Source: Trujillonella endophytica
GTDB taxonomy: Bacteria > Actinomycetota > Actinomycetes > Mycobacteriales > Geodermatophilaceae
Length of the DNA: 64,000 bases
Assembly: GCF_900110555.1 (NCBI RefSeq)
Contig: NZ_FOEE01000019.1
Span: forward strand, 1 to 64,000
Direction of reading: 5' to 3'
The translations under genes and the position numbers were made by a program. The notes under the pieces were generated by a model that was not told the DNA's origin, did no database searches, and saw nothing but the letters and a program-made list of their open reading frames with translations. Each line of letters starts with the position of its first letter. Positions within the stretch are counted from its first letter, which is position 1. Below are positions 9,347 to 58,338 of this stretch, in pieces.

Positions 9347-9843
9347 GCCGCCACCAGCCCGCGCACCCGCAGCTCGGTGATCTGCGCCAGCTGCTCGGTG
9401 GTCTCGGCCCGCTCGGCGGCCTCGTCGGCGTCCAGCCGGCGGCGCAGCTCGGCCAGCATCTCCTCCGGCGACCGCCCCGCCGCACGGATGAGGAAGACGT
9501 GCCCGAAGCGCTCCTCGTAGGCCCGGTTGCCCTCGACCAGTGCCACCCGCGTCCGCTCGTCGGCCCCGCCCATCGCCGCCTGCTCCCGGCGGGAGGCCGC
9601 GGCCTCGGCGGAGGCGCCGTCGACCCGGTCGCCGATCCGCGGGTGCGCGGCCAGCGCGATCGACACCTCGTCCCAGGCGAGGCCGCGGGCGACCTCGCCG
9701 GCGCGGCGCACCAGCGTCGCGACGTCCGGGTACGGCCGGCCCGCGGCGATCTCGGCCGCGAACCGCGCGGCGGCGTTACAGGACCGCAACGCCTCCACGG
9801 CACGGTCGGCGGGCTCGGAGTTGAACTCGTCGAGGCTGGCCAC
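9343..9843 (-). CDS. uraD: 2-oxo-4-hydroxy-4-carboxy-5-ureidoimidazoline decarboxylase (166 aa)
   Basis: OHCU decarboxylase, yielding S-allantoin stereospecifically. Signature AAHPRIGDRV holds the catalytic His; YEERFGHVFLIRAAGRS is the conserved second block. First gene of the leftward purine operon. The GTG at 9841-9843 fits the family's N-terminus, but no Shine-Dalgarno site precedes it at normal distance; CATCCT lies about 7 nt ahead and could serve a leaderless transcript. Only 40 bp separate it from divergent aceB, so the two promoters must overlap. Confidence 0.9.
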   Translation of the reverse strand: MASLDEFNSEPADRAVEALRSCNAAARFAAEIAAGRPYPDVATLVRRAGEVARGLAWDEVSIALAAHPRIGDRVDGASAEAAASRREQAAMGGADERTRVALVEGNRAYEERFGHVFLIRAAGRSPEEMLAELRRRLDADEAAERAETTEQLAQITELRVRGLVAA

Positions 9844-44992: not shown

Positions 44993-47482
44993 TCACGGCG
45001 CGAACACCCGCCCGAGGTGGGCCAGCAGCGCGTCGTCGGTCACCGGCCGGGCCCGGAAGCCGACGTGGCCGTCGGGGCGCACCACGTAGCCGGCAGGGCC
45101 CGCGGGGTCGCCGCCGGCCAGCCCGTAGGCGGCCCGGAACGCGGCGGGGGCGCGGAGCACCGGCAGGTCGACCAGCGCGGGCAGCCGGGCGGCGGCGTCG
45201 GCGAGCAGGTACGGCCGCACCTGCCCCCGGGACGCCTGCCGGACGGCGGCGGTCAGCTTCTCCAGCTCGAGCACCTGCTCCCGGGGAACGTCCGCGTCGA
45301 CGGCGAGCAGCAGCGTCGTGTGCGTGCCCCGGGTCAGGTCGAACAGCCGCAGGTCGTGCGCCACGCCGAAGCGGCGCAGCCCGTGCACGTCCGGCGCCCG
45401 GTGCCCCGGCTCGGGACCGCCGGTGAACCCCGCGTCGTCGGCCGCCTGACCGACCAGGGGGCTGCCGGCGTAGTTCATCGTCATCTGCATCTCGAGCAGG
45501 AACTGGGCCTTCTCGTCGTCCATGTCCATCTCGTCGGTGAACGCGATGGCCACGGCGCGGTCGACGATCGCCTTGCCGGCGGGACGGCGCTCGGCGTCGT
45601 AGCTGTCGAGCAGGCCGGGCGCGGCGAGCCCGCGCACGGCCAGGGCCAGCTTCCAGCCCAGGTTCCAGGCGTCCTGGATGCCGGTGTTCATGCCCTGGCC
45701 GCCGGCGGGTGGGTGCAGGTGCGCCGCGTCGCCGGCGACGAACACCCGGCCGGACCGGTACCGGTCGACGATGCCGTGCTTGATGCGGAAGATCGACGAC
45801 CAGCGCAGGTTGCTCGCCGTCGTGCCGGGCGGGCCGAGGTCGTCGACGGCGGCCTGCAGGTCGGCCAGCGTCGGCGGCTCGTACTCCTGCCAGAAGCCGG
45901 CCGGCACGATCCCGGAGCCGATGGTCTCCTGCAGCCGCTGGGGGGCCAGCGTGGCGATCCGGTACCGCCGCCGGCCCTTGAGCGGGACGCACACGAGCAT
46001 CCCGGTGAACGCGCCGTCGTCCTCGATGCGCACCCAGCGCAGCAGGTGGCCGGGAGGCACGTCCTCGGGTGCCGCACCCCAGTCGACGTCGACGTCGCCG
46101 AGCATGAACAGCTGCGGGAACATCGACAGCCCGCCGACGAAGCCGAGCCCCAGGCCCGTGCGCACCGCGCTGTGCGCCCCGTCGCAGCCGACGAGGTACC
46201 GGGCGCGGGCGTCCTCGACCTCCCCCGAGGCGTGCTGCAGCCGCGCGGTGACGCCGTCGTCGTCCTGGTCGAACCCGACCAGTTCCACGCCGCGCTCGAC
46301 GGCGACACCGGCGGTGAGCAGCCGCGCGGTCAGCAACCGCTCGGTCTCGTACTGGGGCAGCCCGAGGTGGGCGTAGGGGAGCTCCTCCAGGCCGGACCAG
46401 TCGACCTGGTGGGTCTGCACGCCGTTGACGAACACCGTCTGCCCGTGCAGCCAGATGCCGGTGTCCATCGCCTCGGCGGCGATGCCCTGGTCCTCCCAGA
46501 TCTCCATGGTCCGGCAGTGGATGCCGATGGCCTTGTCCGCCTGCGTCGACGCCTCCGACCGCTTGTCGACGACCCGGACGGCGATGCCGCGGCGGGCCAG
46601 CTCGATCGCGTGGGTCAGCCCGGCCGGTCCGGCGCCGACGACGAGCACCTCGGCGTCCGCGCGGCCGGTGCGCGGGGGCGCGGGGGACGGTGCCGGCGAG
46701 GCCGGGGCCGGAGCGGGCGCCGGCGCGGTGCGGGGCGGTTCCACGAACTCCTGGACCGGTGCGCTGGGCACCGGCACCGGTGTCGGTGCCGGCATCGCCC
46801 GCGGAGGCTCGGTACGGGGTGGGGGCGGGGCGTAGCCGCCGTCCCCGCTTCCGTGCTCCGGCGGCCGGTAGCGGATCTCGTACAGCCGACGGTCGAAGTC
46901 GACCGACAGCCACCGGACGAGCGTGGCGGTCTGGTCGGCGTGCGAGGGGTCGTCCACCCAGTTGGTGAAGTCCTGCTCGGTCTCCCACTCGGCGAAGATG
47001 TGGTAGATCGGCTCGGCCGGCTCCTTGAGCAGCTCCTCCCGGATCAGCCCGGGGGTGCCGCGCAGCCGCTCCACCGTGGTCCGGTACGCGCGCTCGAACA
47101 GCTCCTCCTCGCCGGGCCCGACCACCGTGCGGATGTCGACCCGCACGTGGGGTCCCCGGTCGCCGGGCACCTCGTACAGCACCTCGTAGGTGCTGCGGGA
47201 GGCGTCCTCGCGCAGGTCGCGCAACGCCGCGGTGAGGAACTCCCGCGCGCTGCTGCGGCCGAAGGCGTCGACCGCGGCCCGGTCCACCCAGTCGCTGGTG
47301 ATGAGGAAGGTGCGGGGATCGTCGGCGTCGCGCACCAGCTCCTGCCGCAGGTTCCCGGGCACCCGGCTGATCTCCGCGGCGGCCGCCCGCCACGCCTCCT
47401 CGAACCGCTCCTCGCAGCCCTCCCGCGTGCGCATCCGCAGCAGCGTCCGCACGCCCGCCCGGTCACCGCTGCCCGCGCTCAT
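44993..47482 (-). CDS. ABM-ABM-FAD monooxygenase fusion (829 aa)
   Basis: Three-part enzyme. Two antibiotic-biosynthesis monooxygenase domains (about 8-105 and 108-210; FLITSDWVDRAAVDAF and YHIFAEWETEQDFTNWV) precede a ~75-residue Pro/Ala-rich linker. A class A FAD aromatic hydroxylase follows, with VVGAGPAGLTHAIELARRG (about 293), CDGAHSAVR and GDAAHLHPPAGGQGMN, then a thioredoxin-like C-terminal domain as in PgaE or RdmE. The ABM parts could act as a quinone-forming oxygenase and the FAD part as an aromatic hydroxylase. The ATG overlaps the KS-beta stop (ATGA). From memory, XanO4-type fusions in xanthone pathways are a precedent. Confidence 0.9.
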   Translation of the reverse strand: MSAGSGDRAGVRTLLRMRTREGCEERFEEAWRAAAAEISRVPGNLRQELVRDADDPRTFLITSDWVDRAAVDAFGRSSAREFLTAALRDLREDASRSTYEVLYEVPGDRGPHVRVDIRTVVGPGEEELFERAYRTTVERLRGTPGLIREELLKEPAEPIYHIFAEWETEQDFTNWVDDPSHADQTATLVRWLSVDFDRRLYEIRYRPPEHGSGDGGYAPPPPRTEPPRAMPAPTPVPVPSAPVQEFVEPPRTAPAPAPAPASPAPSPAPPRTGRADAEVLVVGAGPAGLTHAIELARRGIAVRVVDKRSEASTQADKAIGIHCRTMEIWEDQGIAAEAMDTGIWLHGQTVFVNGVQTHQVDWSGLEELPYAHLGLPQYETERLLTARLLTAGVAVERGVELVGFDQDDDGVTARLQHASGEVEDARARYLVGCDGAHSAVRTGLGLGFVGGLSMFPQLFMLGDVDVDWGAAPEDVPPGHLLRWVRIEDDGAFTGMLVCVPLKGRRRYRIATLAPQRLQETIGSGIVPAGFWQEYEPPTLADLQAAVDDLGPPGTTASNLRWSSIFRIKHGIVDRYRSGRVFVAGDAAHLHPPAGGQGMNTGIQDAWNLGWKLALAVRGLAAPGLLDSYDAERRPAGKAIVDRAVAIAFTDEMDMDDEKAQFLLEMQMTMNYAGSPLVGQAADDAGFTGGPEPGHRAPDVHGLRRFGVAHDLRLFDLTRGTHTTLLLAVDADVPREQVLELEKLTAAVRQASRGQVRPYLLADAAARLPALVDLPVLRAPAAFRAAYGLAGGDPAGPAGYVVRPDGHVGFRARPVTDDALLAHLGRVFAP

Positions 47483-48720
47483 GCCGTCGCGCCTCCCTCG
47501 TACCGGCGCAGCACCAGGCTGCTGTTGAAGCCGCCGAAGCCGCGGGCGAGCACGACGACGGTCGAGACGGGCTGCACCCGCGGCCGGCGCAGCAGCTCGA
47601 CGCCCGGCGCGTCGACGGGGTCGTCGAGGTGGGCGGTCCCCGGCGCGATGCCGTCGCGCATCGCCAGCACGGCGGTGGCCACGGCCAGCGCGGAGCCCCC
47701 GGCCATCAGCCGCCCGGTCCAGGACGACGGCGCGCTGACCGGCACGGGCGTCGAGCGCGACGCGAAGGCCTCGCCGATCGCCGCGAGCTCCAGCGCGTCG
47801 AGCTCCGGGGTCCCCGCGCCGTCGGCGAGGACCAGGTCCACCTCCTCCGGGGTCACGCCGGCGTCGGCGAGGGACAGCCGGATCGCGCGCGCGTACTGGC
47901 CGGCGTCCGGGGCCGGGTCCTCGTGGTGGTGGGCGTCGTGGGTCGCGCCGTAGCCGCAGACCTCGCCCCACACCCGCCCGACGCCGCGGGCCCGGGCCGC
48001 GCCCGGTTCCTCGAGCAGCAGGATGGCGCCGCCCTCGCCGACGACGTGCCCGTTCGCCCGCCGGTCGAACGGCAGGTACGCGGCCTCCGGCCGGGTCGCG
48101 GTCGACAGCCGGCCGCTGGTGGCCTGGCACAGCAGCGCGTACGGGCACATGCCGGCCTCGGTGCCGCCGACCAGGATCGCCGGCGTCCCCCGCCTCGCCA
48201 CGCGCCGGGCCCAGCCGATGCTGTCCAGCCCGCCGGCGGCCTCGCTGACCACGACACCGGAGGGCCCCTTGTACCCGTCGCGGATGGAGATCTGACCGGT
48301 GCTCGCGGCGTAGAACCAGGCGATCGACTGGTAGGCGCCCACCGACCGGGGCCCCTTGGCCCACAGTCCCTGGATCTCGTGCTGGCTGAACTCGTTGCCG
48401 CCGGAGCCGGCCGCCAGGAAGACGGAAGTGGCATAGGCGTCCTCGGGGGCGGAGTACCCGGCGTCCTCGGCGGCCAGCGTGGCCGCGGCCAGCGACATCC
48501 AGGTCCACCGGTCGGTCTGCACCATGAGCCGGGAGTCCACGTGGTCGGCGGGGCGGAAGTCGCGGACCTGACCGGCCAGCGAGATCCCGTACGCGGTCGG
48601 GTCGAACCCCTCGATCGGCCCGATCGCCGCCTCCTCGCGGAGCACGGACGACCAGTGGGCCTCGGCGCCGACGCCGGTCGGCGCCACGACCCCCAGCCCG
48701 GTGACGAGCAGGCCGGTCAC
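47479..48720 (-). CDS. Type II PKS ketosynthase beta / chain-length factor (413 aa)
   Basis: Partner of KS-alpha; sets chain length and supports priming. Thiolase fold throughout ([11 protein letters not shown] at the start, [28 protein letters not shown] at the end). The active-site Cys is absent, as expected for a chain-length factor, but the segment reads [10 protein letters not shown] with Ala where most such proteins have Gln. The catalytic His positions of KS-alpha are not conserved. GTGA overlap with KS-alpha upstream and ATGA overlap with the monooxygenase downstream give strict coupling of the heterodimer. Confidence 0.93.
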
Positions 48721-50006
48721 GGGGTCCTCCGGGACGGCCGGGACAGCACGATGGCCGACTGGAAGCCGCCGAAGCCGCTGCCCACCGACACCGCGACGTC
48801 GACCTTCTGCTCGCGCGCGGTGTTGGGGATGTAGTCGAGGTCGCACTCGGGGTCGGGCACCTCGTAGTTGGCGGTCGGCGGCAGCACCCCGCGCTGCAGG
48901 GCCAGCGCGGTCGCCGCGACCTCGATCGACCCGATGGCGCCGAGGGAGTGGCCGACCATCGACTTGATCGAGCTCATCGCCACCCGCTGCGCGGCCGGCC
49001 CGAGGCTGCGCTTGACCGCGGCGGTCTCGTGCCGGTCGTTCTGCTTGGTCCCCGAGCCGTGCGCGTTCACGTACCCGACCTCGTCGGGGGCGGTGCGGCC
49101 CTGGGCCAGCGCCTGCCGGATCGCCTCGGCCATCTCGACGCCGTCGGGCTTGAGCCCGGTCATGTGGAAGGCGTTGCAGCGGTTGGCGTAGCCGGTGATC
49201 TCGCAGTAGACCTCGGCGTCCCGTCGCCGGGCGCTCTCCAGCTCCTCCAGCACCAGCACCGCCGCGCCCTCGCCCATGACGAAGCCGTCCCGCCGGGCGT
49301 CGAAGGGCCGGGCCGCGTGCTCGGGGTCGTCGTTGTTGCCGGTGGTCGCCCGGATGGTGTCGAAGCAGGCCATGGAGATCGGCGAGATCGGTGCGTCGCT
49401 CGCGCCGGAGACGACGACGTCGGCGTCGCCGTCCTCGATGAGCTGGCTGGCGTAGCCGACCGCGTCGATGCCGGACGTGCACCCGGTGGAGACGACGACG
49501 GCCGGCCCGTGCGCGCCGAAGCGGACCGCGAGCTCGGTGGCGCCGCAGCTGGGCACCAGCGCGTGGTGCAGGAAGGAGGAGGCGTAGCGCGGGTCGACCA
49601 GCCAGTGGGTGCCGGCGTCGCTCACCGCCACGTACTCCTGTTCCAGCCGCATGGTCGCCCCGACCGCGCTGCCGAGGGCCACCCCCACCCGGTCGGGGTC
49701 GGGGGCGCCGGCGGCGCCGGAGCCGAGGGGGAGCCCGCTGTCGGCGACGGCCTCGTCCGCGGCCACCATGGCCATCTGCACGAACCGGTCGTTGCGGTGC
49801 ACCTCGTGGGCGGTCAGCCCGAGCAGCCGGCCGTCGAAGTCCACCTCCGCGGCCACCTGGGAGCGGAACAGGGCGGGATCGAAGAACGTGATCCGCCGGG
49901 TCGCCGTCCGGCCGGCGGTGAGCATGTCCCAGAAGCCCTCCCGGCCCATCGAGCCGGGGGCGACCACGCCGATGCCGGTGACGACGACCCGGCGGCGGTC
50001 GCTCAC
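48717..50006 (-). CDS. Type II PKS ketosynthase alpha (429 aa)
   Basis: Catalyses decarboxylative Claisen condensation of malonyl-ACP. Catalytic Cys in [14 protein letters not shown] near residue 173, His in [14 protein letters not shown] and His in [13 protein letters not shown], with [15 protein letters not shown] and a closing [14 protein letters not shown] complete active-site triad. The order KS-alpha then KS-beta is conserved in type II systems; the ACP is not in its usual place after KS-beta but several genes upstream, fused to biotin carboxylase. Overlaps the cupin gene by 4 bp. Confidence 0.95.
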
Positions 50007-50425
50007 CGGAGATCCGGGGCGGGCTCGGTGTCGACGTGGCCGAGCTCCGGTCGCGGGGCCAGCGGCCCGTTGCAGAACACGAAGAACGCCGCGGTGTCGC
50101 CGTCGTTGACGATCCGGTGGCGGACGCCGATCGGGATGTGCACGGCGGACTCCGCCCCGAGCCGGCGCGGCTCGCCGTCCAGGGTGACCAGCACGTCCCC
50201 GCGCTGGCAGTAGAGGAACTCCTCGGAGTACGGGTGCCAGTGCTCCCGCACGACCTCGCCGGGCTCGAGGGTCAGCGTGCCCATGAAGGCGGCGGTGGTC
50301 CCCACGTTCGCCGGGGACAGCAGGACGCGGATGTCGCCGCCGCGGCGGCGGTTGGGCGGGGTGGCGGCGCGGGAGACCGTCGGGCCGACCCGTACCGCGC
50401 TCGGGGCGTGCTGGATGGTGGTCAT
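50003..50425 (-). CDS. Cupin-domain polyketide protein (140 aa)
   Basis: Single conserved beta-barrel cupin with motif 1 [18 protein letters not shown] (metal-ligand His-x-His and Glu) near residue 63 and motif 2 [14 protein letters not shown]. This resembles the WhiE-ORFII / CurC-type cupins found beside KS-alpha in spore-pigment and pentangular clusters, where they are thought to assist cyclisation or oxidation. ATGA overlap with the acyltransferase-like gene and GTGA overlap with KS-alpha. Confidence 0.87.
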
Positions 50426-51402
50426 GTCCCTCCTCGGACGGGAGCCGTGCCGGCGAGCGCCGGCGCGGGGGCGGCAGCGGGCGGAGCGGGAGCGGTGAGG
50501 GGCGACGCCGGGCCGGTGACCAGGCGGACCGGGAGCCGGGGGTGGACCTGGCGGACGAGCGGGCCGAGCACGGGGGCGCCCCCCACCTCGAGGACCTCGA
50601 CGGCTCCCGCGGACACGAGGGCGCGGGACGTCTCCTCCCAGCGGACCGGCGCGGTCAGGTGGTCGGCCAGGCTCTGGGCCAGCCGTTCCGGGTCCTGGCT
50701 GGGCACCGGGTCGGCGTTGGGCACGACGGGGACGGCGGGCACGCTCCAGGTCAGCTCGGCGAGGGCGGCCGCCAGGTGCTCGGCCACCGGCCGGGCCAGC
50801 GGCCCGTGGCACGCGGGGCGGCCGGGCAGCCGCACCAGGTCCAGCCCGGCGGCCAGCACGCCCCAGCGCGCCCGGGCCAGCTCCTCGCGCTCGCCGCAGA
50901 GCACGGCCTGGGCGGGGCCGTCGTAGCAGGCGACGGCCAGCGTCCCGCCCCCGGAACGGGCGACGACGGCGCGGGCGACCTCGGCGGCGCCGTCGCCGAC
51001 GACGGCGGCCATGCCGGCGCGGGAGGGCCGGGGGGCCAGCGCCATGAGGTCGGCGCGCCAGCGGACCAGCTCCACGACCTGCTCCAGGTCCAGGGCGCCG
51101 GCGGCGACCAGCGCCGCGTACTCCCCGACCCCGTGCCCGGCGACGGCGACCGGCCGGAGGCCGCGCGCGGTGAGGCTGCGCCAGGCCGCGACGCCGGTGA
51201 CCACGACCTCGAGGTCGGCCGCCTCCCGGTCGGGAAGGGCGAGCGGCTCCCGCCACCAGCGGGCGAGGTCGCGGCCGGCGACGGCGGAGGCCCGGGCCAC
51301 CACCTCGGCGGCGACCGGGTCGAGCAGCCAGGGGTCGGCCAGGCCGGGGAGGGCGCCGCCCTCGCCCGGCAGGACGACGGCGACACCCGGGACGGAGCTC
51401 AC
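50422..51402 (-). CDS. Acyltransferase-like protein lacking the catalytic Ser (326 aa)
   Basis: FabD/malonyl-CoA:ACP transacylase fold: [12 protein letters not shown] (start loop), a nucleophile elbow reading [20 protein letters not shown] with the carboxylate-binding Arg region, and [15 protein letters not shown] with the catalytic-type His. In active enzymes the elbow is GHSxGE; here the codon is GGG, so Ser is replaced by Gly and transacylase chemistry by the usual mechanism should be impossible. The rest is well kept and a Pro/Ala-rich tail ends the protein. It may be a structural or decoy partner. Coupled by 4-bp overlaps on both sides. Confidence 0.82.
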
Positions 51403-51922: not shown

Positions 51923-52183
51923 TCAGGCCATCCGGGCCGAGTCGGGGGCGCCGGCGACGGTCGCGACGATCTCGCCGAACGTGTACCGGTCGGGGCTGTC
52001 GTCGGGCATCTCGGTCCTGTAGCGGTCGTGCAGCTCGGTCTGCATCGACAGGAAGGCCAGGGAGTCCAGGCCGATGTCGGAGAACCGGGCGGCCGGGTCG
52101 GAGGTGCGCGCCGTCGGCGACAGCCCCGCCTTCTCGGTGAGCAGGTCCATGAGGTCGTCGAGGGTGAACGACGGGTCGGGCAT
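51923..52183 (-). other. ACP module with own ribosome binding site (86 aa if internally started)
   Basis: Internal ATG at 52183 begins MPDPSFTLDDLMDLLTEKAG and gives an ACP of standard type II length with the DSL modification site. AGGAGAGG at 52193-52200 lies 9 nt ahead. Internal initiation would supply free ACP in addition to the fused form. Confidence 0.6.
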
Positions 52184-53668
52184 GGGACTGGTCCTCTCCT
52201 GATCGGGACGGTCCGGCGCCGGGGGATCCGGTGCCGGCGCGCGGACGAGCTGCAGGGGGCCGCGGGTCGCGGGGACGTCGAACGCCGGGTCCTCGGCCAG
52301 CGAGGCGGTGCGGGCGATCAGCTCCGGCAGGGTGCGGTCGAGGAACTGGACGTCGTGCTGGTCGGCGATCACGGCGGGGTGGCGCAGCAGCGCGCGGTGC
52401 AGGGCGACGGTGGTGTGCACCCCGGGCCCCTCGACCCGCAGCTCGCTCAGCGCGCGGTCCATCCGGCGGATCGCCTGGTCGCGGTCGGGGGCCCAGACGA
52501 CGAGCTTCCCGAGCAGGGAGTCGTAGTGCGGGCTGATCTCGTCGCCCTGCCGGTACCCGGTGTCGAACCGCGTCCAGGGACCGCCGGGGACGTGCAGGAC
52601 GTCGAGCCGGCCGGGCGCCGGCGCGAACCCGCGGGCGGGGTCCTCCGCGTTGATCCGGCACTCGATCGCCGCCCCGCGGGGGACGACGTCCTCCTGCTGG
52701 AACTGCAGCCGGCGGCCGTCGGCGACGAGGATCTGCTCGCGCACCAGGTCGATCCCGGTGAGCAGCTCGGTGACCGGGTGCTCCACCTGGATGCGGGCGT
52801 TCATCTCCATGAAGTAGGCCCGCCCGGTGCCGTCGACGAGGAACTCCACGGTCCCGGCGCCGGTGTAGCCGACCGAGAGCGCGCCGTGCACCGCCATCGC
52901 CCCGAGCCCCGCACGCTGGGCCGGGGGGAGATGCGCCGCCGGCCCCTCCTCCAGCAGCTTCTGGTGCCTGCGCTGCAGCGAGCAGTCGCGCTCGCCGAGG
53001 GAGACGCCGTTGCCGTGGGCGTCGCAGAGGATCTGCACCTCGACGTGTCGGGCCGAGGGGAGGAAGCGCTCGACGTAGACGGAGGGGTCGCGGAAGACGG
53101 CGCGGGCGGTGGCGCGGGTGCTGACGAAGGCCGCGGCGAAGTCGGCCGGGCCCGTCACGACGGTCATCCCGCGACCGCCCCCGCCGGCCGCCGCCTTGAT
53201 GATCACCGGGTAGCCGATCCGGTCGGCCACCTCGCGCCCCTCGTCCGCGGTGCGGACCGGCTCGACGACCCCGGGCAGCAACGGGAGGCCGGCGTCGGCC
53301 ATCAGGCGGCGTGCGGTCGCCTTGTTGCCCATCTGCTGCATGACCTCGGGCGGCGGGCCGACGAAGGTGAGTCCCTCGGCCGCGCAGATCTCGGCGAAGT
53401 CCGGGTCCTCGGACAGGAACCCGTACCCGGGGTGCACCGCGTCCGCGCCGGTGCGCAGCGCGGCCTCCACGATGTTGGGCACGTGCAGGTAGCTGCACCG
53501 GGGGGCCGCGGGGCCGATGTGCACGGCCTCGTCGGCGAGGGCGACGACGGCGGAGTCGCGGTCCGACGTCGAGTGGACGGCGACCACCTCGATGCCGAGC
53601 TCGCGGCAGGCCCGGGCGACGCGGACGGCGATCTCGCCGCGGTTGGCGATGAGCAGGCGGTTGATCAT
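51923..53668 (-). CDS. accC: Biotin carboxylase in frame with acyl carrier protein (581 aa)
   Basis: Residues 1 to about 450 are a complete biotin carboxylase: MINRLLIANRGEIAVRVARA, GYGFLSED, the glycine-rich ATP-grasp loop KAAAGGGGRGM, and MEMNARIQVEHPVTE. A ~45-residue Pro-rich linker then leads, without a stop codon, into an 86-residue ACP with the phosphopantetheine Ser in DIGLDSLAFL (Ser near residue 535). The ATG overlaps the biotin carrier stop (ATGA). Either a real AccC-ACP fusion is made, or ACP is also produced from the internal ATG at 52183, which has AGGAGAGG 9 nt upstream. Confidence 0.9.
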   Translation of the reverse strand: MINRLLIANRGEIAVRVARACRELGIEVVAVHSTSDRDSAVVALADEAVHIGPAAPRCSYLHVPNIVEAALRTGADAVHPGYGFLSEDPDFAEICAAEGLTFVGPPPEVMQQMGNKATARRLMADAGLPLLPGVVEPVRTADEGREVADRIGYPVIIKAAAGGGGRGMTVVTGPADFAAAFVSTRATARAVFRDPSVYVERFLPSARHVEVQILCDAHGNGVSLGERDCSLQRRHQKLLEEGPAAHLPPAQRAGLGAMAVHGALSVGYTGAGTVEFLVDGTGRAYFMEMNARIQVEHPVTELLTGIDLVREQILVADGRRLQFQQEDVVPRGAAIECRINAEDPARGFAPAPGRLDVLHVPGGPWTRFDTGYRQGDEISPHYDSLLGKLVVWAPDRDQAIRRMDRALSELRVEGPGVHTTVALHRALLRHPAVIADQHDVQFLDRTLPELIARTASLAEDPAFDVPATRGPLQLVRAPAPDPPAPDRPDQERTSPMPDPSFTLDDLMDLLTEKAGLSPTARTSDPAARFSDIGLDSLAFLSMQTELHDRYRTEMPDDSPDRYTFGEIVATVAGAPDSARMA

Positions 53669-54186
53669 CGCGGCCGTCCCGCGGGCCGCAGCAGCATGAG
53701 GACCTGGTCGTACTCGACCGAGTTCGCGTCGGCGACCCGGATCTCGGCCACCACCGCCTGCTCGTCGGCGACGATCGGGTTCATCAGCTTCATCGCCTCG
53801 ACGATCCCGACGGTCTGGCCGACCTCGACCTCGTCGCCCTCGCGGACGAAGGGGTCGGCGTCCGGGGACGGCGCCGCGTAGAACGTGCCGACCAGCGGCG
53901 CGCGCACCGCCGTCATGCCCTCGGGCACCTCCGGCTCGACGCCCTCGTCGGCCGGCGGGGCGGCGGTCGCGGCGGTCGCGATCGGGGCCGGCGGGGCGGG
54001 GGTCGCGGTCGCCCACTCGACCTCGATCGCCCGCTCCCCGCTGCGCACGGTCAGCCGGCGGAGGTCGCCCGGCAGGGCCTGCGCGAGCTCGACCACCTCG
54101 TCGCGCAGCGCCCGCGGGCTGTCGTCGGGGGACGGCGGCGCGTCGGCGGCCTTCGCGGTCCGCGGGGGCAGCTCGGTCGGTTGCAC
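53665..54186 (-). CDS. accB: Biotin carboxyl carrier protein of the pathway carboxylase (173 aa)
   Basis: C-terminal biotinyl domain with the biotinylated Lys in VEAMKLMNPI near residue 138 and an APLVGTFYAAPSPDADPFV thumb-like segment. The N-terminal ~90 residues are a helical region followed by a Pro/Ala-rich linker, as in AccB. GTG 54186 lies one base past the AccD-AccA stop, with AGGAGGG inside the end of that gene. Shuttles carboxybiotin between AccC and the carboxyltransferase. Confidence 0.92.
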   Translation of the reverse strand: MQPTELPPRTAKAADAPPSPDDSPRALRDEVVELAQALPGDLRRLTVRSGERAIEVEWATATPAPPAPIATAATAAPPADEGVEPEVPEGMTAVRAPLVGTFYAAPSPDADPFVREGDEVEVGQTVGIVEAMKLMNPIVADEQAVVAEIRVADANSVEYDQVLMLLRPAGRPR

Positions 54187-54187
54187 G

Positions 54188-55915
54188 TCAGCCCTCCTGC
54201 GCAACGGTCGGAACGGCGCGCAGGGCCTGGGTGTCGCCCCCGCCGATGCGGGCCAGCCGCCGCACCCGGGCCTCGAGCAGGTCGGCGACGTCGAGCCGGG
54301 CCAGCTCCTCCAGGTGCCGCAGCAGCGCGGCCCGGAGGGCCTGCCCGGCCGCGTCCACGTCGGCGGCCGCACCACCCGCGGGCTCGGGGACGACGGCGTC
54401 GGCGATGCCGGAGTCGCGCAGGTGGGCCGCGCCGAGGCGCATGGCGCGGGCCGCGGTGGGAGCCGCGGTGGCGGTGCGCCACAGGATGGCGGCGCAGCCC
54501 TCGGGGCTGATCACCGACAGGAAGGCGTTCTCCAGCACGAGCAGCCGGTCGGAGGTGCACAGGGCGAGCGCGCCGCCGCTGCCGCCCTCGCCGGTCACCA
54601 CCGACACGATGGGGACCCGCAGCCGGCTGCTGCGCTGGATGATCTCGGCGATCGCGTGGGACTGGCCGCGCTCCTCGGCCTCGGGCCCGGGATGCGCGCC
54701 CGGGGTGTCCACGAGCGTGACCACCGGGAGCCCGAAGGTCTCGGCGTGCCCGAGCAGCCGCATGGCCTTGCGGTAGCCCTCGGGGTGCGCCATCCCGAAG
54801 TTGCGGGCCACCCGCTCGCGCACGGTGTGCCCCTTCTCGTGGCCGATCACGACGACCGTGCGGCCGGCGAGGGAGGCGACGCCCCCGACGACGGCGGGGT
54901 CGTCGGAGAACGCCCGGTCACCGTGCAGCTCGACGAAGTCGTCGAACGCGGAGGCCAGGTAGTCCAGCGTCGTCGGCCGCTCGACCGCCCGCGCCCGCTG
55001 GACGACCTCCCACGGGTCGGGGCCCGCCACGGCCCGGGACTGCGGGGGCGCAGGCGCGGGCCGGGTGCCGCCACCGCCCCGGCGTCCGTGGTGCAGGGCC
55101 AGCAGCCGGGTGAGCACCGGTCGCAGCTCCGCCCTGGTCTCGACCCGGTCGACCAGGCCGTGGGCCAGCAGGAACTCGGCGGTCTGGAAGTCCGACGGCA
55201 GATCGGCGCCGATGGTCTCCTGCACCACCCGCCGTCCGGCGAAGCCGACGTGCGCTCCGCGCTCGCCGACCAGGACGGAGGCCAGGGTGGCGAAGGAGGC
55301 GGAGACCCCGCCGTAGGTCGGGTCCGTGAGCACGCAGACGCTGAGCAGGCCGGCCTCGCGCACCTGGGCGAAGGCGGCGCTGGTCCGCGCCATCTGGAAC
55401 AGCGAGAAGACGCCCTCCTGCATCCGGGCGCCGCCGCTGGCGCAGACGGTGATCAACGGCAGCTGCCGCTCCACGGCCAGCGCGGCCGCCGCGCTCACCC
55501 GGCGGCCCACCTCCACGCCCATGCTGCCGCCGAGGAAGCCGAAGTCCATGACGGCGACGACGACCGCGGTCCCCCCGATCGCGGCCGTGCCGACCACGAC
55601 GGCCTCGGACTCGCCGGAGCGGCGCGCGGCCTCCTGCAGGCGGTCGGTGTAGTCGCGGAGGTCGGTGAAGATCAGCGGGTCGCGGTGGCCGGAGCCGGAG
55701 ACCGTCTCGGCGAAGCTGCCGGGATCGACGAGCAGCTCGATGCGCGCACGGGCGCTCAGCCGCAGGTGGTGGTCGCACTCGGGGCACACGGACAGGTTCC
55801 GGTCCAGCCGCTTGCGGTACAGCAGCCAGCCGCACTCGGGGCAGGAGACCCAGCCGGCGTGTGCGGCGGGTGGGCGGCCGAGCGCAGGGGCCGTGGTCGT
55901 CGACGTCGGGGACAT
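54188..55915 (-). CDS. Acetyl-CoA carboxyltransferase AccD-AccA fusion (575 aa)
   Basis: Both carboxyltransferase subunits in one chain. The AccD part (about 1-280) has the zinc ribbon CPECGWLLYRKRLDRNLSVC (C-x2-C-x15-C-x2-C) near residue 25 and ASGGARMQEGV. The AccA part (about 300-575) has LASAFDDFVELHGDR, RNFGMAHPEGYRKAMRLL, TPGAHPGPEAEERGQ and GEGGSGGALAL. With AccB and AccC it completes a dedicated acetyl-CoA carboxylase that should raise malonyl-CoA for chain extension. Such fused AccDA proteins occur in several aromatic polyketide clusters. Confidence 0.92.
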   Translation of the reverse strand: MSPTSTTTAPALGRPPAAHAGWVSCPECGWLLYRKRLDRNLSVCPECDHHLRLSARARIELLVDPGSFAETVSGSGHRDPLIFTDLRDYTDRLQEAARRSGESEAVVVGTAAIGGTAVVVAVMDFGFLGGSMGVEVGRRVSAAAALAVERQLPLITVCASGGARMQEGVFSLFQMARTSAAFAQVREAGLLSVCVLTDPTYGGVSASFATLASVLVGERGAHVGFAGRRVVQETIGADLPSDFQTAEFLLAHGLVDRVETRAELRPVLTRLLALHHGRRGGGGTRPAPAPPQSRAVAGPDPWEVVQRARAVERPTTLDYLASAFDDFVELHGDRAFSDDPAVVGGVASLAGRTVVVIGHEKGHTVRERVARNFGMAHPEGYRKAMRLLGHAETFGLPVVTLVDTPGAHPGPEAEERGQSHAIAEIIQRSSRLRVPIVSVVTGEGGSGGALALCTSDRLLVLENAFLSVISPEGCAAILWRTATAAPTAARAMRLGAAHLRDSGIADAVVPEPAGGAAADVDAAGQALRAALLRHLEELARLDVADLLEARVRRLARIGGGDTQALRAVPTVAQEG

Positions 55916-55945: not shown

Positions 55946-56293
55946 TCAGCGGGCGGGGCGGGGCGCGGACCCGGCCGCGGCCGTCCAGTGGTAGAACCGC
56001 TCGGCCATCGCGTCCTGGGGCGAGCGCCAGTCCGACGCGTAGGCCTGGATGTAGGGCCGCAGGTCCTCGCTCACCGCGCGGAAGGCCGGCAGCGACTGGG
56101 CGATCCGCATGGCGTGCGGCGCGGGGCGGTCGAAGTCGATCAGGTGGACGTAGAGCCCCCGGAACCGGAACAGCGACCGCGCCTGCACGCCGATCTCGTG
56201 CGGCATGGAGGTCTCGTCATACCGGCCGAAGACGGCGGCGACGTCGTCGGCGTCCTCCGGGGCCATCCTCGCGATGATCATCGTCTGGTCCAC
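55946..56293 (-). CDS. TcmI-family polyketide cyclase (115 aa)
   Basis: Single-domain TcmI-type cyclase: MIIARMAPEDADDVAAVFGRYD, EIGVQARSLFRFRGLYVHLID and a C-terminal WRSPQDAMAERFYHW that matches both halves of the tandem protein at 42955-43647. First gene of the 13-gene operon. GGAGG lies 5 nt before GTG 56293; an ATG at 56281 is an alternative. Probably closes later rings of the polyketide. Confidence 0.88.
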   Translation of the reverse strand: MDQTMIIARMAPEDADDVAAVFGRYDETSMPHEIGVQARSLFRFRGLYVHLIDFDRPAPHAMRIAQSLPAFRAVSEDLRPYIQAYASDWRSPQDAMAERFYHWTAAAGSAPRPAR

Positions 56294-56608: not shown

Positions 56609-57340
56609 ATGGTCGGCGGACCGGGTACACGCGGCTCTGCGGAGACCGGACGCGAGGGTGGCCCCCGGGTGGGCGTCCTCGTGTGCGACGACCACGACGT
56701 GCTGCGCCGCGGCCTGCGCACGGTCCTCGCCCGGGCGCCCGGCCTCGTCGTCGTCGCCGAGGCGGCCGGTGCCGACGAGGCCCTCGCTCTTGCGAGCCGG
56801 CTGCGCCCCGACGTCGTCCTGGTCGGTCTCGGCGCCCGCGGCCCGGTGGTGCAGCGGCTGGTGGGCGCGCTCTCGGCCCTGGGCATCCGGGTGGTCCTGC
56901 TCGGCGAGGCCGGCCCGGCCAGCGGCGACTTCGTCGAGGCGCTGCGGGCCGGGGCCCGCGGCTACATGTACACGACGGTCAGCCCGGAGCGGCTGATCGA
57001 GGGCGTGCGGGCGGTGGCCAACGGCGCGACCGTCCTCGACGGGGCCGTCACCGGCGAGCTGCTGCACCGGCTCGAGGGGGCCGGCTCGGGGGCGGCCCTG
57101 CCGAGCTCGAGCCCGCTGACGGCGCGGCAGTGGGCGGTGGCGGAGCTGGTGGCGGAGGGGCTGTCCAACGCCGAGATCGCCGAGCGGCTGCAGCTGAGCC
57201 GGGCGACGGTCAAGGCACACATCACGGTGGCCCTGCGCCGGTTGGGGCTGCGGGACCGTACCCAGCTCGCCATCCATGTCCACCACATGACGCAGGGTGA
57301 TTACGGTAGCGAAGAGTCAGTGGGTGACCGCGGACAGTGA
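56609..57340 (+). CDS. Atypical NarL-type response regulator 1 (243 aa)
   Basis: Receiver-like domain (about 20-145) plus LuxR-type helix-turn-helix (about 165-230: LTARQWAVAELVAEGLSNAEIAERLQLSRATVKAHI). The acidic pocket CDDHD is kept, but the phospho-acceptor strand reads DVVLVGLGARGP, with Gly in place of Asp, and the switch Lys region reads GYMYTTV. Conventional phosphorylation is therefore excluded. No kinase gene is nearby. Divergent from the polyketide operon, so a pathway-specific activator or repressor sensing a ligand is likely. Confidence 0.88.
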   Translation: MVGGPGTRGSAETGREGGPRVGVLVCDDHDVLRRGLRTVLARAPGLVVVAEAAGADEALALASRLRPDVVLVGLGARGPVVQRLVGALSALGIRVVLLGEAGPASGDFVEALRAGARGYMYTTVSPERLIEGVRAVANGATVLDGAVTGELLHRLEGAGSGAALPSSSPLTARQWAVAELVAEGLSNAEIAERLQLSRATVKAHITVALRRLGLRDRTQLAIHVHHMTQGDYGSEESVGDRGQ

Positions 57341-57552: not shown

Positions 57553-58338
57553 ATGAGTCAGAACGACAACGGGGTCAGGACAGGTCAGCTGCGGTCGTCC
57601 TCGGAGCGGCAGGACGTGCGGGTTCCGGGCGGTGCGGGGCCACCCCGCGTGCGCGGGCCGGTCCGGCCCGGGGGGATCCGGCCGCCGACGGCGCTGCTCG
57701 GCGTGGTCCTCTGCGAGGACCACGAGGTCTTCCGCCTGGGTCTCCGGGTGGTCCTGGAGGCGCAGCCCGACATCGCGGTGGTCGCGGAGACCGCGCAGCT
57801 CCCCGAGGCGGTGGCCGCGGCGGCGGGCGGCGGGACGGCGGTCGTCGTCGTCCGCCAGGGGCTCATCGGCGAGGCCACCCGCCCGCTGCTGCGGGAGCTG
57901 TGCCGGTGCGGGCCGGCGGTCCTCGTGCTGGCCGAGCCGGGCGAGGACGCCGAGGTGGACCTGGTGGAGGTGCTGCAGGCCGGGGTCCGCGGTTACCTCC
58001 CGCGCCGGTCGGCGGCCCACCGGCTGGTCGAGGCGGTGCGGGCCCTGGCCCGGCACGAGGCCGCGCTCGACCCGGAGGCCACCGGCCAGCTCGTCCGCCG
58101 CCTGACGGCGATGCCGGACCGGGCCGACGCGTGCCCGCTGGACCGGCTCACGGAGCGGCAGCGCGAGGTGACCGCGCTGGTGGCGCGCGGTCTGAGCAAC
58201 GAGGAGATCGCGGGCCGGCTCTTCGTCAGCCTGGCGACCGTCAAGAGCCACCTGACCGCGTCGATGCGGCGGCTGGGGGTCCGGACCCGCACGCAGCTGG
58301 CGATCCTGGTGACCCGGGAGGGGTCGACCGTGGCGTGA
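57553..58338 (+). CDS. Atypical NarL-type response regulator 2 (261 aa)
   Basis: Second regulator of the same design with a ~48-residue Arg/Pro/Gly-rich N-terminal extension, receiver-like domain (about 50-175) and LuxR helix-turn-helix (about 195-255: LTERQREVTALVARGLSNEEIAGRLFVSLATVKSHL). The pocket CEDHE is kept, but the acceptor position reads AVVVVRQGLIG (Arg for Asp) and the switch Lys is Arg (GYLPRRS). Alike in order and spacing to the gene before it, so probably a duplicate. Has its own 212-bp upstream region. Confidence 0.88.
   Translation: MSQNDNGVRTGQLRSSSERQDVRVPGGAGPPRVRGPVRPGGIRPPTALLGVVLCEDHEVFRLGLRVVLEAQPDIAVVAETAQLPEAVAAAAGGGTAVVVVRQGLIGEATRPLLRELCRCGPAVLVLAEPGEDAEVDLVEVLQAGVRGYLPRRSAAHRLVEAVRALARHEAALDPEATGQLVRRLTAMPDRADACPLDRLTERQREVTALVARGLSNEEIAGRLFVSLATVKSHLTASMRRLGVRTRTQLAILVTREGSTVA

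What the first reader, a model, noticed from the sequence alone, without database searches (positions are those of the whole stretch)
51923..53668. Biotin carboxylase translated in frame into the acyl carrier protein
The accC frame has no stop before the ACP: 495 codons (carboxylase plus a Pro-rich linker) lead directly into an 86-residue ACP. Two cofactor-dependent functions, carboxybiotin formation and polyketide chain carriage, may be physically joined, which could channel malonyl units. The internal ATG at 52183 has its own AGGAGAGG, so the cell might make both fused and free ACP from one gene. I know of no standard type II system with this arrangement.
Basis: partly seen in the sequence, partly recalled or inferred. 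Interest (0 to 1): 0.78.

Follow-up and report, generated by a model that had tools for sequence, protein, structure and literature searches.

The report
Carboxylase gene running into carrier gene
In some soil and stone bacteria a gene for a carbon-adding enzyme runs without a stop into the gene for the carrier protein of a polyketide pathway, while sister species keep the two genes in different frames; probably the cell makes both a joined and a free carrier protein.

Summary
In detail: window 51923-53668 (minus) is one 581-codon frame, biotin carboxylase (BC) + 48-residue linker + 86-residue ACP, with AGGAGAGG and an ATG before the ACP. It is not a base error: 17 of 36 non-redundant Geodermatophilaceae loci have the in-frame join; in the other 19 the ACP is in another frame and accC stops between 2 nt before and 61 nt after the first base of the ACP start. 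No in-frame join was seen in 72 loci from outside the family. The fused loci are not one clade (AU p 6e-7; at least 2 switches within the family). A start codon with a purine-rich stretch precedes the ACP in 36 of 36 (by eye). Best reading: an overlapping, translationally coupled gene pair lost its stop by a linker frame change, so these species probably make BC-ACP plus free ACP from the internal start. Linker phase is conserved (2 phase changes in 14 length changes, versus 17 in 29 at the next junction; p 0.009), but in both states alike, so nothing here shows that the fusion has its own function. Malonyl channelling is untested and not favoured. New variant of a known kind.

The parts
52328..53668 (-). 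biotin carboxylase domain (AccC), residues 1-447 of the 581-aa frame
   Evidence: Pfam PF00289, PF02786, PF02785; NCBIfam PRK08591 611.8 bits over its cut-off 597, TIGR00514 599.4 under its 626.5
52184..52327 (-). Pro/Ala-rich linker, residues 448-495, with a recurring RGxLxLV-like patch; the unfused BCs have a similar C-terminal tail
   Evidence: pooled over 17 fused loci GC1/2/3 0.83/0.60/0.92, omega 0.46 over 9 pairs (linker counted there from codon 441)
52193..52200 (-). internal Shine-Dalgarno-like sequence AGGAGAGG
   Evidence: sequence; duplex energy -9.3 kcal/mol, reached by 8.7% of sampled accC positions
51923..52183 (-). acyl carrier protein, 86 aa, internal ATG start at 52183; one of three PP-binding matches over the cut-off in the genome and the only one on this contig
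52061..52063 (-). Ser536 of the GLDSL motif (presumed 4'-phosphopantetheine site)
   Evidence: G533 L534 D535 S536 L537 invariant in 17 of 17; motif meaning recalled
53665..54186 (-). biotin carboxyl carrier protein, ATGA overlap with accC
   Evidence: TIGR00531 114.4 bits, just under its cut-off 115.2
54188..55915 (-). carboxyltransferase, AccD and AccA in one chain
   Evidence: TIGR00515 and TIGR00513 both over cut-off
55946..56281 (-). polyketide cyclase, PF04673
51399..51911 (-). polyketide cyclase/aromatase (PF10604/PF03364)
50422..51402 (-). acyl transferase, probably malonyl (PF00698; nearest NCBIfam MdcH and FabD, both under cut-off)
50003..50425 (-). cupin
48717..50006 (-). ketosynthase
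47479..48720 (-). second ketosynthase-like protein (chain length factor by position; role inferred)

Best explanation
An operon for a type II polyketide carries its own acetyl-CoA carboxylase. BC and ACP were an overlapping, translationally coupled pair (ATGA-type stop/start in the nearest outgroup and in two unfused loci of the family). A frame-changing indel in the loosely constrained BC tail put the two genes in one frame in several Geodermatophilaceae lineages, so ribosomes no longer stop at the ACP start. The cell then makes a 581-aa BC-ACP protein by reading on, and free 86-aa ACP by initiation at the internal ATG, instead of by termination-reinitiation. Free ACP is probably the form that serves the ketosynthase; the fused ACP is probably tolerated cargo on BC that may also be usable. 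Shown: the frame, its recurrence, the conserved internal start, phase conservation. Inferred: both products, their roles, and the direction of the changes.
For: Frame and domains. 17 of 36 fused; in 19 of 36 accC stops -2 to +61 nt from the ACP start. Start and purine-rich stretch in 36 of 36 (by eye). ATGA in outgroup L036 (Amycolatopsis taiwanensis) and in L018 and L121. In the window 6 of 10 operon junctions are 4-nt overlaps and only BC/ACP lacks a stop. Linker phase: 2 phase changes in 14 length changes, versus 17 in 29 at the next junction (Fisher p 0.009), or 17 in 30 when measured to a protein motif instead of a start codon (p 0.010). The third phase, not seen in 36 of 36, would add 60-615 codons of unrelated tail. 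The early out-of-frame stop is present in 19 of 19 unfused but 10 of 17 fused (p 0.002; rows not independent, and its presence is what makes a short overlap). mRNA near the ACP start is predicted more unpaired (0.47 fused, 0.51 unfused) than at sampled accC positions (0.31). Coupling at overlaps is shown by experiment for other gene pairs (PMC6728339, passages seen).
Against: No protein data. SD duplex energies of some fused loci are ordinary: -5.3 to -6.5 in the five-member Modestobacter-type clade, matched or beaten by 19-43% of sampled accC positions, so free ACP synthesis could be weak there. Phase conservation of the fused loci taken alone (at most 2 of 9 against 17 of 29) is not significant (p 0.12). 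Counting fewest changes allows fusion at the base of the family with two later splits as well as repeated fusions.
Confidence: 0.66

Rival explanations
1. The fusion is the working form: ACP is tethered to the carboxylase so that malonyl made on the spot, or the state of the chain on ACP (feedback by acyl-ACP), is coupled to BC.
For: The in-frame state persists through at least 7 linker length changes among fused loci; acyl-ACPs are known to feed back on E. coli acetyl-CoA carboxylase (PMC12977641, passages seen); no other PP-binding match lies on this contig.
Against: 19 of 36 loci of the family have it unfused; linker not more constrained when fused; internal start kept in 17 of 17 fused; carboxybiotin, not malonyl, is made at BC (recalled); a transferase gene that could load malonyl lies in the same operon.
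Confidence: 0.13
2. Only free ACP and BC matter; the fused chain is made in trace amounts or is cut in the linker by a protease, giving separate proteins.
For: The linker is Pro/Ala-rich and variable; 72 of 72 loci examined outside the family have BC without an in-frame ACP, and the persiamycin cluster lists BC (465 aa) and ACP (85 aa) apart (PMC7296137, passages seen).
Against: No stop lies between the domains in 17 of 17 fused loci, so reading on is expected; no cleavage site was sought.
Confidence: 0.17
3. Sequencing or assembly error at the junction.
For: None.
Against: Same phase in 17 loci, including L008, 91% identical.
Confidence: 0.02

Closest known systems
Acetyl-CoA carboxylase genes inside type II polyketide clusters, e.g. 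persiamycin perHIJ with per3 ACP (PMC7296137, passages seen)
   Same: BC, BCCP, carboxyltransferase (507 aa there), WhiE-like cyclases, cupin protein and ACP listed in one cluster
   Different: BC (465 aa) and ACP (85 aa) are separate proteins there; L055, from the same strain name (Streptomonospora sp. PA3), shows no ACP within about 1.6 kb after BC (that L055 is the per cluster was not checked further)
Overlapping gene pairs coupled by termination-reinitiation (PMC6728339, passages seen)
   Same: Unfused loci of the family have the stop of accC at or shortly after the ACP start, with a purine-rich stretch inside accC
   Different: In the fused loci there is no stop, so reinitiation after termination is impossible and new initiation is needed
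Internal in-frame translation, Cas8b/Cas11b (PMC11899642, abstract and section 4.1 seen)
   Same: One gene giving a long protein and its free C-terminal part from an internal AUG with a possible SD
   Different: There the abstract reports that the short product is made and needed; here it is predicted only, and carrier and enzyme belong to different steps of a pathway

Membership tests
bacterial acetyl-CoA carboxylase, biotin carboxylase subunit | full BC domain set and subfamily score | tested here: met
   three Pfam domains over cut-off; PRK08591 611.8 over 597, but TIGR00514 599.4 under its 626.5
bacterial acetyl-CoA carboxylase, biotin carboxylase subunit | BCCP and carboxyltransferase partners encoded beside it | tested here: met
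   (PF00364 over cut-off, TIGR00531 114.4 just under 115.2; AccD and AccA over cut-off)
type II PKS acyl carrier protein | PP-binding domain with DSL serine, in an operon with a ketosynthase pair | tested here: met
   PF00550 26.1 bits over 20.8; ketosynthase pair. NCBIfam ACP models are all under cut-off
type II PKS acyl carrier protein | discrete, separately translated protein | tested here: inconclusive
   in frame with BC, but own start and purine-rich stretch kept in 17 of 17 fused loci
termination-reinitiation gene pair | stop of first gene at or near the start of the second | tested here: not met
   no stop between BC and ACP in the window; present -2 to +61 nt from the ACP start in 19 of 36 loci
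gene with internal in-frame initiation (two products) | internal start with SD, in frame | tested here: met
gene with internal in-frame initiation (two products) | both products detected | not testable with these tools
   needs protein or ribosome data

The most novel reading that the evidence does not exclude
BC-ACP is a selected two-form system: a carboxylase-tethered ACP that loads malonyl locally or reports chain status to the carboxylase, plus free ACP for the ketosynthase, with sister lineages switching between tethered and untethered states by single linker frame changes.
Probability: 0.12. Interest if true: 0.72.

Novelty: new variant of a known kind. Interest (0 to 1): 0.42.

Why it matters
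If both products are made, the family is a natural comparison of two ways to set the BC:ACP ratio (termination-reinitiation versus internal initiation) at one junction of related operons. It also shows how an enzyme-carrier fusion can arise by a frame change in a coupled operon, and it warns annotators that a 581-aa 'biotin carboxylase' can hide the ACP of a polyketide cluster.

Tried and rejected
Stop-free linker as proof of selection: rejected, only about 0.4 stop gains expected (fused 0.41, unfused 0.44; 8 pairs per class, 16 of 17 fused and 16 of 19 unfused loci used; two fused pairs, L012-L102 and L033-L089, are not sister loci).

Stronger SD or more ATG as compensation in fused loci: mean duplex energy -8.9 versus -6.3 kcal/mol and ATG in 16 of 17 versus 7 of 19, but only 2 independent pairs exist on the tree, so no conclusion. 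The coupling paper itself reports that in several groups SD motifs matter more for reinitiation than for new initiation (PMC6728339, passages), so the expected direction is not clear either.

Programmed -1 frameshifting that would make the fusion in unfused species: slippery heptamers in 1 of 19 unfused family loci (L120), so rejected. An RNA structure at the window's junction: z +1.22, nothing.

Fusions on plasmids: 1226 records match; in the 60 rows listed no match goes beyond query residue 467, so none reaches the ACP; 1166 records were not listed.

Papers: searches (listings and the abstract openings printed with them) showed no described BC-ACP fusion. A type II PKS review has 0 occurrences of 'fusion' and of 'carboxylase' (PMC12664062, term search and passages only); the frankiamicin paper has 0 of 'carboxylase' (PMC4383371, likewise). 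The library lacks most subscription journals.

Structure prediction of the fused protein could not be run.

Full report
What is there. On the minus strand, 53668 to 51923 reads as one frame of 581 codons. Residues 1-447 are a biotin carboxylase, 448-495 a Pro/Ala-rich linker, and 496-581 an acyl carrier protein with GLDSL. AGGAGAGG lies nine bases before the internal ATG at 52183. The surrounding operon encodes a cyclase (PF04673), an AccD-AccA carboxyltransferase in one chain, BCCP, BC-ACP, a second cyclase, an acyltransferase, a cupin, two ketosynthase-type proteins and an ABM-ABM-FAD monooxygenase. Six of its ten junctions are 4-nt overlaps; BC/ACP is the only one with no stop. The own genome has three PP-binding matches over the cut-off, one of them here.

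Is it real and shared? A scan of genome contigs kept 80 of 133 related loci, and 35 of 112 genomes of the family, the window's own included, match at E up to 1e-150. In 17 of 36 BC and ACP share a frame; in 19 of 36 the ACP is in another phase and accC stops between 2 nt before and 61 nt after the first base of the ACP start. So it is no base error, and not universal either. Of 72 loci from outside the family (53, 19, not checked for duplicates between the two sets) none has an ACP in frame with BC; four have an ACP-like frame after BC (L034, L036, L058, and L136 about 480 bases away). These loci were chosen by likeness to BC: the list is cut at 80, and the class search kept matches with E up to 1e-150 (47 of 394 genomes). 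More distant BC-ACP fusions could be missed.

History. On a tree of the BC coding DNA the fused loci are not one clade (AU p 6.4e-7). The fewest changes are 3 with the two outgroups and 2 within the family. Ten of 35 inner branches have weak support. The nearest outgroup, Amycolatopsis taiwanensis, has an ATGA overlap of accC and ACP, as have L018 and L121. This points to a coupled overlapping pair as the older form; whether fusion came once and was undone, or came several times, is open.

Is ACP still made free? In 36 of 36 loci an ATG or GTG with a purine-rich stretch lies at the ACP start (by eye). The mRNA around it is predicted more unpaired than at sampled accC positions, in both classes (0.47 and 0.51 versus 0.31, Mann-Whitney p 4e-7 and 2e-9; related loci, so p values are too small). 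Duplex energies with the anti-SD tail range from -5.3 to -11.8 in fused and -5.7 to -8.8 kcal/mol in unfused family loci; the weaker ones are not exceptional against sampled accC positions. I take free ACP as likely, not shown.

Is the joined state selected? For: the BC-to-ACP phase is held. From the RGxLxLV-like patch to the ACP start, at least 14 length changes include only 2 phase changes (7 length changes within fused, 6 within unfused). The next junction, ACP to cyclase, has 29 length changes with 17 phase changes on the same tree (35 of 36 loci, L012 not found; start codons assigned by rule); Fisher p 0.009. Measured to a conserved protein motif instead of a start it is 17 of 30, p 0.010. 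Against: unfused loci hold their phase as well; fused loci alone give p 0.12; linker omega is 0.46 fused and 0.33 unfused (9 and 10 pairs, not all independent), BC 0.145 and 0.139, ACP 0.54 and 0.55; and absence of stops is expected by chance. A simple reading is that two phases are tolerable and the third is not, because it would add 60-615 codons of unrelated sequence. In fused loci the early out-of-frame stop is gone in 7 of 17, against 0 of 19 unfused, as expected once it is no longer used; the rows are related, and a stop near the start is part of what was seen as unfused.

Mechanism. In the unfused loci the arrangement fits termination-reinitiation coupling, shown for other pairs in E. 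coli and Haloferax (PMC6728339, passages; one of five E. coli pairs there was not coupled). Without a stop that route is closed, and free ACP must come from new initiation inside a translated gene, as reported for Cas11b inside cas8b (PMC11899642, abstract and one section). The fused chain should be made whenever accC is translated. BC forms carboxybiotin; malonyl is formed at the carboxyltransferase and moved by a transferase (established enzymology, recalled), so direct hand-over from BC to ACP is not expected. Sensing of acyl-ACP by the carboxylase is conceivable, since acyl-ACPs inhibit the E. coli enzyme (PMC12977641, passages).

Verdict. Observation confirmed; two-product idea plausible and the best reading; channelling unproven. 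A related cluster with separate proteins is published (persiamycin, PMC7296137, passages). I found no description of a BC-ACP fusion in the searches, in an open-access library only.

Noticed in passing
window 44993-47482 (-): Two antibiotic-biosynthesis-monooxygenase (ABM) stretches joined to a FAD monooxygenase in one 829-aa frame at the end of the same operon.
   Followed up: no
window 54188-55915 (-): AccD and AccA halves of the carboxyltransferase in one chain, both over their NCBIfam cut-offs.
   Followed up: partly
L009 9748-9758, L022 9777-9787, L024 9753-9763 and others, between ACP and cyclase genes: A short motif GGACCCCGTCC, palindromic but for its centre, recurs just after the ACP gene in several relatives whose ACP-cyclase gap is long; not found in L001, which covers this place in the window.
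   Followed up: partly
window 56658-57340 and 57553-58338 (+): Two neighbouring frames that look by eye like LuxR-type response regulators, divergent from the polyketide operon (no family search made).
   Followed up: no
L022 and L021, ACP start (about 9488-9535): The N-terminus of the ACP is lengthened by repeated Met-containing units in some unfused Modestobacter loci, giving several possible starts.
   Followed up: no
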